Shown one piece after another: positions 57,564 through 58,220 of a DNA stretch of 58,220 nt (position 1 is its first letter; each line of letters starts with the position of its first letter). The stretch is from Candidatus Gastranaerophilales bacterium (lineage in GTDB: Bacteria; Cyanobacteriota; Vampirovibrionia; Gastranaerophilales; Gastranaerophilaceae): assembly GCA_944324255.1 (NCBI GenBank), contig CALUVM010000012.1, positions 1 to 58,220 of the forward strand, read 5' to 3'. A model generated the notes under the pieces. That model was not told where the DNA came from. It made no database searches and worked only from the letters and a program-made list of their open reading frames with translations. A program made the translations under genes and the position numbers.

Positions 57564-57803
57564 CTAAGCTTGTATAATAGTTCTACCGTCAACAACTTCT
57601 TTAGGGAAGATTGTGAAACTCTCGAGGTTTTCTATTCCCATTTTTTTATTTGTTTTAGCTGTTTTATTAATAAAATTAGCTTCATTAGCTTTGGCAATAG
57701 GGTTTGTACCTTCCGGAGAAGACATAAAACTATTGCTCATACGAATAAACAAATTTCTTCTGGCATTATTTTGACCAATACGTGATATAGCTGAAACTTC
57801 CAT
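57564..57803 (-). CDS. Small hypothetical protein
   Basis: A 79-residue basic, Asn-rich protein with AAAAGGTGA as ribosome site. No domain is recognised. It lies just upstream of dut and is probably cotranscribed. Confidence 0.5.
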   Translation of the reverse strand: MEVSAISRIGQNNARRNLFIRMSNSFMSSPEGTNPIAKANEANFINKTAKTNKKMGIENLESFTIFPKEVVDGRTIIQA

Positions 57804-57926: not shown

Positions 57927-57955
57927 TTGTAACAAAAAAATGTTTGTGCTAGAAT
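57927..57955 (+). promoter_or_regulatory. Promoter of the right-end tandem repeat RNA
   Basis: TTGTAA (57927-57932), 17-bp spacer, and extended -10 TGCTAGAAT (57947-57955). The expected start is near 57961, reading into the repeat; no open frame follows. Confidence 0.65.
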
Positions 57956-57960
57956 ACTTT

Positions 57961-58150
57961 TTGTCAACAAAGTTTAATGTTGGTATTGAAAATTGAATAA
58001 TACAAATTGTGTCGATGTAGGACTCCGCTGAAAAAGCAATTAAATGTTGCTTTTGAAGATGGAGCAGGCGAGTTCGAGCATAAGCGAGATGAGCCGTATA
58101 CAAGATATCCGATTCCGCCACGTGGTAGGATAGGATGTAAAAATTAATCG
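57961..58150 (+). ncRNA. Candidate structured RNA, repeat copy 1 (57986-58150)
   Basis: After the promoter comes a leader and then a 165-bp unit (57986-58150) with no ORF on its strand and little coding character. It holds a stable hairpin AAAAGCAA/TTGCTTTT with loop TTAAATG, set between GACTCC and GGAGC segments that can also pair, then short palindromes (GTATAC, GATATC, CCACGTGG). The GC content is clearly higher than in its flanks. These features suit a small structured RNA. No known family is recognised. Confidence 0.45.
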
Positions 58151-58220
58151 TTGAAAATTGAATATAATATTTGTGTCGATGTGGCACTCTGCCGAGCAAA
58201 AGTTGACTAAATGTCAAGTT
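58151..58220 (+). repeat. Candidate structured RNA, copy 2 (partial, cut by window edge)
   Basis: It opens with the same 13 bases as copy 1 (TTGAAAATTGAAT), shares TTGTGTCGATGT and the CTC-GC stem side. The hairpin at this position has different stem bases around the same TAAATG-type loop. It carries a TATAAT of its own (58163-58168). Confidence 0.6.

What the first reader, a model, noticed from the sequence alone, without database searches (positions are those of the whole stretch)
57927..58220. Tandem, structured, non-coding element with its own promoter at the right edge
A good promoter (TTGTAA, 17 bp, TGCTAGAAT) reads into a 165-bp unit that is repeated at once. The two copies keep TTGAAAATTGAAT, TTGTGTCGATGT and a hairpin with a TAAATG-type loop, but the stem bases differ (AAAGCAA/TTGCTTT versus AAGTTGAC/GTCAAGTT with one mismatch). 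That suggests structure rather than sequence is selected. No open frame or known RNA family is recognised. Tandem homologous sRNAs are common regulatory designs.
Basis: partly seen in the sequence, partly recalled or inferred. Interest (0 to 1): 0.62.

Follow-up and report, generated by a model that had tools for sequence, protein, structure and literature searches.

The report
Hairpin repeats capping a tRNA gene
The tandem element is two copies of a small hairpin-bearing repeat that carries a copy of the start of a tRNA gene and sits between that tRNA-leucine gene and its promoter; the same kind of repeat flanks many tRNA genes across one family of gut bacteria (Gastranaerophilales), apparently as a miniature tRNA-targeting DNA element that nobody seems to have described.

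Summary
The window is a whole contig that breaks off inside an array upstream of a tRNA-Leu(GAG) gene. The "good promoter" is that tRNA's promoter, conserved at the orthologous locus in related genomes, where 0 to 4 units lie between promoter and tRNA. Each unit is: leader motif TTGAAAATTRAATA, a copy of the first ~11 nt of the tRNA, a covarying hairpin, usually a stretch complementary to the tRNA, then the next leader. The hairpin is found in almost every genome of this family (1-55 copies), not in Rfam or viral contigs. In the host genome all 16 copies lie beside a tRNA gene or at a contig end bearing a tRNA-end copy. Insertion is precise: mostly 11-12 (or 18-20) nt inside the tRNA 5' end, or 11-14 nt inside the 3' end on the other strand. 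The copied tRNA end stays ~97% identical while flanks decay. That is how tRNA-targeting integrative elements restore their target, but here at 80-250 bp and usually without genes. Stem changes are almost all Watson-Crick, which suggests a DNA hairpin. I read these as non-autonomous, tRNA-targeting palindromic elements, enzyme unproven. A cis-acting leader RNA is the main rival.

The parts
57927..57955 (+). promoter of the downstream tRNA-Leu(GAG) gene (TTGTAA / 17 / TAGAAT)
   Evidence: sequence; TTTGTAAC...TGYTARWAT conserved upstream of tRNA-Leu(GAG) in related genomes with and without units
57986..57999 (+). leader motif TTGAAAATTGAATA, first copy (pre-tRNA leader, perhaps a processing site)
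   Evidence: exact repeat; also present before tRNA-Leu(GAG) in several loci without units; motif within 45 nt upstream of 57/83 tRNAs with units and 8/35 without
58011..58018 (+). copy of the tRNA-Leu(GAG) 5' end (GTCGATGT), unit 1
   Evidence: orthologous tRNA begins GTCGATGTGGCGGAATCGGTATACG
58019..58062 (+). hairpin core of unit 1, long variant (AGGACTCCGCTGA...TGGAG)
   Evidence: model R1 match 58022-58062, E 6e-4; same variant in G004 (L292)
58063..58108 (+). second part of the long variant (...GCAGGCGAGTTCGAGCATAAGCGAGATGAGCCGTATACAAGATAT)
   Evidence: GAGCCGTATACAAGATA conserved in the 14 aligned units
58109..58121 (+). CCGATTCCGCCAC, complementary to the tRNA-Leu(GAG) stretch GTGGCGGAATCGG that spans the insertion point
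   Evidence: sequence comparison with the orthologous tRNA
58151..58164 (+). leader motif TTGAAAATTGAATA, second copy
58175..58185 (+). copy of the tRNA-Leu(GAG) 5' end (GTCGATGTGGC), unit 2
58186..58220 (+). hairpin core of unit 2, common variant (ACTCTGCCGA...TGACTAAATGTCA...), cut by the contig end
   Evidence: matches the family consensus; partial R1 match; window = whole contig C12

Best explanation
Each unit is a copy of a very small, non-autonomous, tRNA-gene-targeting DNA element, placed here in tandem between the promoter and the body of a tRNA-Leu(GAG) gene. Shown: the unit consists of tRNA leader plus the first ~11 nt of the tRNA, then a covarying hairpin core, usually followed by sequence complementary to the tRNA across the insertion point; the tRNA itself is complete downstream; copy number varies 0-4 between related genomes; the same cores occur at the ends of many tRNA genes, in either strand, at a fixed depth from the gene end, and in dispersed repeats. 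Inferred: insertion enters the first hairpin of the tRNA gene (D-arm side, or T-arm side in antisense), and the copy of the gene end that comes with it restores the tRNA, as for tRNA-targeting genomic islands; the palindrome is the site recognised as DNA; copies then expand and shrink by recombination between the repeated leader-plus-tRNA-end segments. The transcript of the units would be the discarded leader of the pre-tRNA. The enzyme is not identified; a small (~184 aa) tyrosine recombinase found throughout the genus is the leading candidate.
For: Host genome: all 16 core matches sit beside a tRNA gene or at a contig end bearing a tRNA-end copy. Among 90 sense and 18 antisense tRNA loci, insertion is 11-12 nt (63/90) or 18-20 nt (17/90) inside the 5' end, or mostly 11-14 nt inside the 3' end on the other strand; identity of the copied tRNA end is ~97%, falling to ~0.7 just outside the gene and ~0.27 by -35 in the sense set. 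Targets include tRNAs and 5S and, by the sequence alone, a tmRNA 3' end. One orthologous locus has 0, 1, 2, 3 or 4 units. Two close relatives (L313, L316) are ~98% identical up to GTCGATGTGG inside the tRNA, then differ completely, tRNA body included: a junction at the element's insertion point. About ten near-identical dispersed copies with unique flanks in G135. Arrays with cargo: three units with one tRNA-Glu 3' end, one carrying two ORFs that look like a toxin-antitoxin pair. Covariation 0/500; G.U is 0.9% of stem pairs against 5.0% in tRNA acceptor stems of the same genomes, P 9e-9. Small tyrosine recombinase next to units and tRNA-Met or tRNA-Val in four cases.
Against: No enzyme is tied to the units: most small-recombinase genes fetched have no tRNA or core nearby, and identical cores at different loci of one genome are only slightly in excess (6.3% vs 3.5%, P 0.048). 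The long variant keeps long apparently unpaired stretches, as a functional RNA would. Low G.U could also come from protein recognition of an RNA helix. Copy-number variation could be plain unequal recombination of an old duplication.
Confidence: 0.52

Rival explanations
1. Cis-acting structured leader RNA: the units are transcribed from the tRNA promoter and their hairpins and tRNA-complementary stretch regulate maturation or level of the tRNA.
For: Position between promoter and tRNA; conserved covarying hairpin; long variant with conserved GGCAGGCGAGT...GAGCCGTATACAAGATA; leader motif TTGAAAATTRAATA kept before each unit and before the tRNA; complementarity to the tRNA.
Against: Orthologous genes exist with no unit. 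The same cores lie in antisense beyond tRNA 3' ends and in dispersed repeats not linked to tRNAs. Some units lack the complementary stretch (L028, L073, L137). G.U pairs are rare.
Confidence: 0.25
2. Integron-like cassettes: a tyrosine recombinase inserts circular hairpin-bearing cassettes, some with genes, at tRNA ends used as the integration site.
For: Tandem arrays with gene-bearing cassettes sharing one tRNA end; structure-conserved palindromes; small tyrosine recombinase beside some arrays; junction at the tRNA end.
Against: Most units carry no gene. The recombinase is not consistently linked. Integron attC/attI motifs were not searched for systematically.
Confidence: 0.12
3. REP-type palindromes moved by a REP-associated tyrosine transposase (RAYT).
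For: Small conserved palindrome with variable stem; RAYT genes (NF047646) occur in several copy-rich genomes of the family, with cores ~140-150 bp upstream in three.
Against: The host genome has none. The RAYTs have their own GTAGGTTGGGC...GCCCAAC palindrome at their start. In L353 the RAYT element sits inside a core, so the core is its target. No GTAG foot on the core.
Confidence: 0.06
4. Tandem homologous small RNAs with their own promoter.
For: Promoter followed by two structured repeats.
Against: The promoter belongs to the tRNA and each unit contains a tRNA fragment.
Confidence: 0.03

Closest known systems
tRNA/tmRNA-targeting genomic islands with tyrosine integrases (Islander, PMC4383910)
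   Same: Sit in tRNA and tmRNA genes; a displaced fragment of the gene end lies on one side and the gene is whole on the other; identity runs to the gene terminus.
   Different: 80-250 bp, usually no gene and no integrase inside; tandem arrays; use both the 5' end (sense) and the 3' end (antisense); conserved hairpin at the junction.
REP / BIME palindromes and RAYT transposases (PMC3733652)
   Same: Short intergenic palindromes in many copies, structure kept while the stem varies.
   Different: No GTAG or CGTC foot; bound to tRNA genes; carry a tRNA-end copy; host genome lacks RAYT.
MITEs (miniature inverted-repeat elements)
   Same: Small, non-autonomous, dispersed, hairpin-forming; near-identical copies in G135.
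   Different: Not shown to have fixed terminal inverted repeats or a fixed target duplication; the duplicated segment ends near the gene boundary.
Integron gene-cassette arrays
   Same: Tandem cassettes with a palindromic site, some with cargo genes such as toxin-antitoxin-like pairs.
   Different: No integron integrase or attC/attI motif shown; the fixed end is a tRNA gene.

Membership tests
tRNA-targeting integrative element | gene whole on one side, displaced gene-end fragment on the other | tested here: met
tRNA-targeting integrative element | identity block ends at the gene terminus | tested here: met
   identity ~0.97 inside the tRNA, ~0.7 just outside, background by -35
tRNA-targeting integrative element | integrase gene inside the element | tested here: not met
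   typical units are 80-250 bp and non-coding; recombinase adjacent in only a few loci
REP/RAYT palindrome | GTAG or CGTC foot | tested here: not met
   core is ACTCTGCCGA...GAGAGG
REP/RAYT palindrome | RAYT gene in the genome, flanked by the same palindrome | tested here: not met
   no PF01797 match in G000; RAYTs elsewhere have another palindrome
IS110 bridge-RNA element | IS110 (DEDD) recombinase present | tested here: not met
   absent from G000; over cut-off in only 1 of 22 genomes
Reverse-transcriptase-driven element | RT gene in genomes that carry it | tested here: not met
   PF00078 in 8 of 38 genus genomes, absent from G000
Known Rfam RNA | match at or above gathering score | tested here: not met
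   also no convincing sub-threshold match
Integron cassette | integron integrase acting on attC/attI | not tested
   tyrosine recombinases are present but none was assigned to the integron class and no attC search was run
Cis-acting leader RNA | transcribed with and acting on the downstream tRNA | not testable with these tools
   position fits; needs RNA data

The most novel reading that the evidence does not exclude
A structure-recognising recombination system in Gastranaerophilales that uses the ends of tRNA, tmRNA and 5S genes as a set of integration sites, builds tandem arrays of hairpin cassettes (empty or carrying genes such as toxin-antitoxin pairs), and rebuilds the target gene each time: an integron-like system with tRNA genes in place of attI.
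Probability: 0.13. Interest if true: 0.85.

Novelty: new variant of a known kind. Interest (0 to 1): 0.6.

Why it matters
A large family of gut bacteria has tRNA genes capped by arrays of structured repeats that copy the tRNA's own end, and no description was found in the open-access literature searched. If they are mobile, they are the smallest tRNA-targeting elements seen here and show how an element can invade essential genes without harm. If they are leader RNAs, they are an unrecognised layer of tRNA control. They also break assemblies (several contig ends of this genome lie in them) and can hide tRNA genes.

Tried and rejected
Rfam at gathering and at relaxed thresholds: nothing. Tandem sRNAs: the promoter is the tRNA's. 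Group I intron fragment, considered from the GACUAAAUGUC and AAGAUA similarity recalled from memory: no Rfam support, units too short. IS110 bridge RNA, considered because sense and antisense target pieces flank a hairpin: no IS110 recombinase. Reverse transcriptase: 8 of 38 genomes. REP/RAYT: tested and set aside. Small tyrosine recombinase: ubiquitous in the genus but linked to units only in some loci. Within-genome excess of identical cores: weak. Viral contigs: 0 matches.

Full report
What the window is. The window is the whole of contig C12 of a 1.89-Mb draft genome in 43 contigs. Relatives that carry the element are mostly titled Candidatus Gastranaerophilales MAGs, many from animal guts. 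The finding lies at the right end, and the contig stops inside the second unit. This is an assembly break: at least five other contig ends of the same genome (C11, C16, C23, C25, C31) lie in the same kind of array, and contigs C20 and C32 begin inside the tRNA body that should follow.

Promoter, 165-bp spacing, shared blocks and two hairpins with different stems are all present.

The promoter is that of a tRNA. A 79-aa ORF divergent from the element (57564-57803, minus strand) was used to find the orthologous locus; 47 of 58 genus genomes have it. In the loci read, the same promoter leads to a tRNA-Leu(GAG) gene. Nine show no unit, eleven show one, four show two, one shows three and one shows four; the window shows at least two; the rest are cut by contig ends. 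Loci without a unit often have TTGAAAATTRAATA just before the tRNA, so that motif belongs to the pre-tRNA leader and is repeated with each unit.

Anatomy of a unit. Leader with motif; copy of the tRNA 5' end; hairpin core; in many cases a second hairpin and a stretch complementary to the tRNA across the insertion point; then the next leader. The common core is ACTCTGCCGA-stem-TAAAT loop-stem-GAGAGG (window unit 2). A longer variant is AAGGACTCC...GGCAGGCGAGT...GAGCCGTATACAAGATA...CCGATTCCGCCAC (window unit 1, same variant as in genome G004). Some units have no complementary stretch, and some tRNAs in this genome carry tRNA-end duplications with other inserts (Val-TAC, Gly-TCC, Ala-TGC).

Structure is conserved. 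On 54 distinct cores, 87% of cells pair, 10 of 16 pairs show changes on both sides, 122 cells have two-sided changes against 40 in shuffles, and no shuffle of 500 reaches the covariation score. Changes go almost directly from one Watson-Crick pair to another: G.U is 9 of 1036 stem pairs (0.9%), against 51 of 1018 (5.0%) in tRNA acceptor stems from the same loci (Fisher P 9e-9). This fits a hairpin that matters as DNA; it is suggestive, not proof.

Distribution. A covariance model of the core finds it in 98 of 117 genomes of the order: nearly all of the host's own family, a few of two other families, none of the rest, with up to 55 copies per genome. No viral contig has it. In the host genome there are 16 matches, all beside tRNA genes or at contig ends that carry a tRNA-end copy: Pro-CGG, Met, initiator Met, Leu-TAA, Leu-GAG, Ala-GGC, Lys-CTT, Glu-CTC, Glu-TTC.

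Precision. At 90 sense loci the insertion is 11-12 nt (63) or 18-20 nt (17) inside the tRNA; at 18 antisense loci it is mostly 11-14 nt from the 3' end. The copied end is about 97% identical to the tRNA; identity falls to ~0.7 just outside the gene and to background by -35. 5S genes are also used, and by sequence a tmRNA 3' end. This is the signature of elements that split a tRNA gene and restore it (principle stated in PMC4383910).

Signs of movement. About ten near-identical dispersed copies in genome G135 have unrelated flanks. Close relatives differ in unit number. Two relatives, L313 and L316, are ~98% identical until ten bases inside the tRNA, then differ entirely, tRNA body included, so the insertion point has also served as a recombination junction. 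Arrays can carry genes: L040 holds three units with the same tRNA-Glu end, one with two small ORFs that look like a toxin-antitoxin pair and one with a 305-aa ORF; L170 also has a gene-bearing unit.

What moves them is not known. RT genes, IS110 recombinases and RAYT transposases do not fit. A ~184-aa tyrosine recombinase with the R...HxxR...H...Y pattern, matching PHROG 216, is present across the genus; it lies beside units and a tRNA-Met in L002, L084 and L182 and beside tRNA-Val in L228, but most of its copies have no tRNA or core nearby. It is a candidate only.

Conclusion. Certain or nearly so: these are tRNA-end-bearing, hairpin-containing repeats of a family-wide class, and this one lies in the leader of tRNA-Leu(GAG). 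Likely: they are non-autonomous tRNA-targeting DNA elements. Open: the enzyme, and whether the transcript has a function. Searches of the open-access library found no description of them; subscription literature could not be searched.

Noticed in passing
L353 (G140:C7), RAYT ORF 1359-1890: REP-associated tyrosine transposases with GTAGGTTGGGC...GCCCAAC palindromes occur in this family; in L353 the RAYT element has landed inside a core hairpin, in L355 between two cores.
   Followed up: partly
L002 576-1127 (G000:C6), L084, L182, L228: A ~184-aa catalytic-domain-only tyrosine recombinase sits right beside tRNA-Met or tRNA-Val genes that carry units; nearly every genus genome searched has small integrases of this kind.
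   Followed up: partly
L040 1001-4312 (G006:C26): Array of three units with the same tRNA-Glu 3' end: one carries two small ORFs resembling a RelE/HigA-type toxin-antitoxin pair, one a 305-aa ORF, one is empty.
   Followed up: partly
L313 / L316: Two close relatives identical up to ten bases inside tRNA-Leu(GAG), then with different tRNA bodies and unrelated downstream DNA: the tRNA body itself was exchanged.
   Followed up: partly
L247, L252, L253 (G000), L126, L190: tRNA-Val(TAC), Ala(TGC), Gly(TCC), Phe and Leu(CAA) have 5'-end duplications with a different insert (e.g. CCCAGCGAGGCGA...AAAGATA) and antisense of the D-arm: other, unmodelled variants.
   Followed up: no
L331-L340 (G135): Dispersed ~165-bp repeat GCGRATTTGC[core]GGACGA...GCAAATYCAAGACAG in two flank types; in L168 a copy without the core is visible.
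   Followed up: partly
window 57564-57803 (-): 79-aa ORF of unknown function, divergent from tRNA-Leu(GAG) and conserved in 47 of 58 genus genomes.
   Followed up: no
L048 1120 (G019:C2): A run of N inside a core hairpin: assemblies tend to break or mask at these repeats.
   Followed up: no
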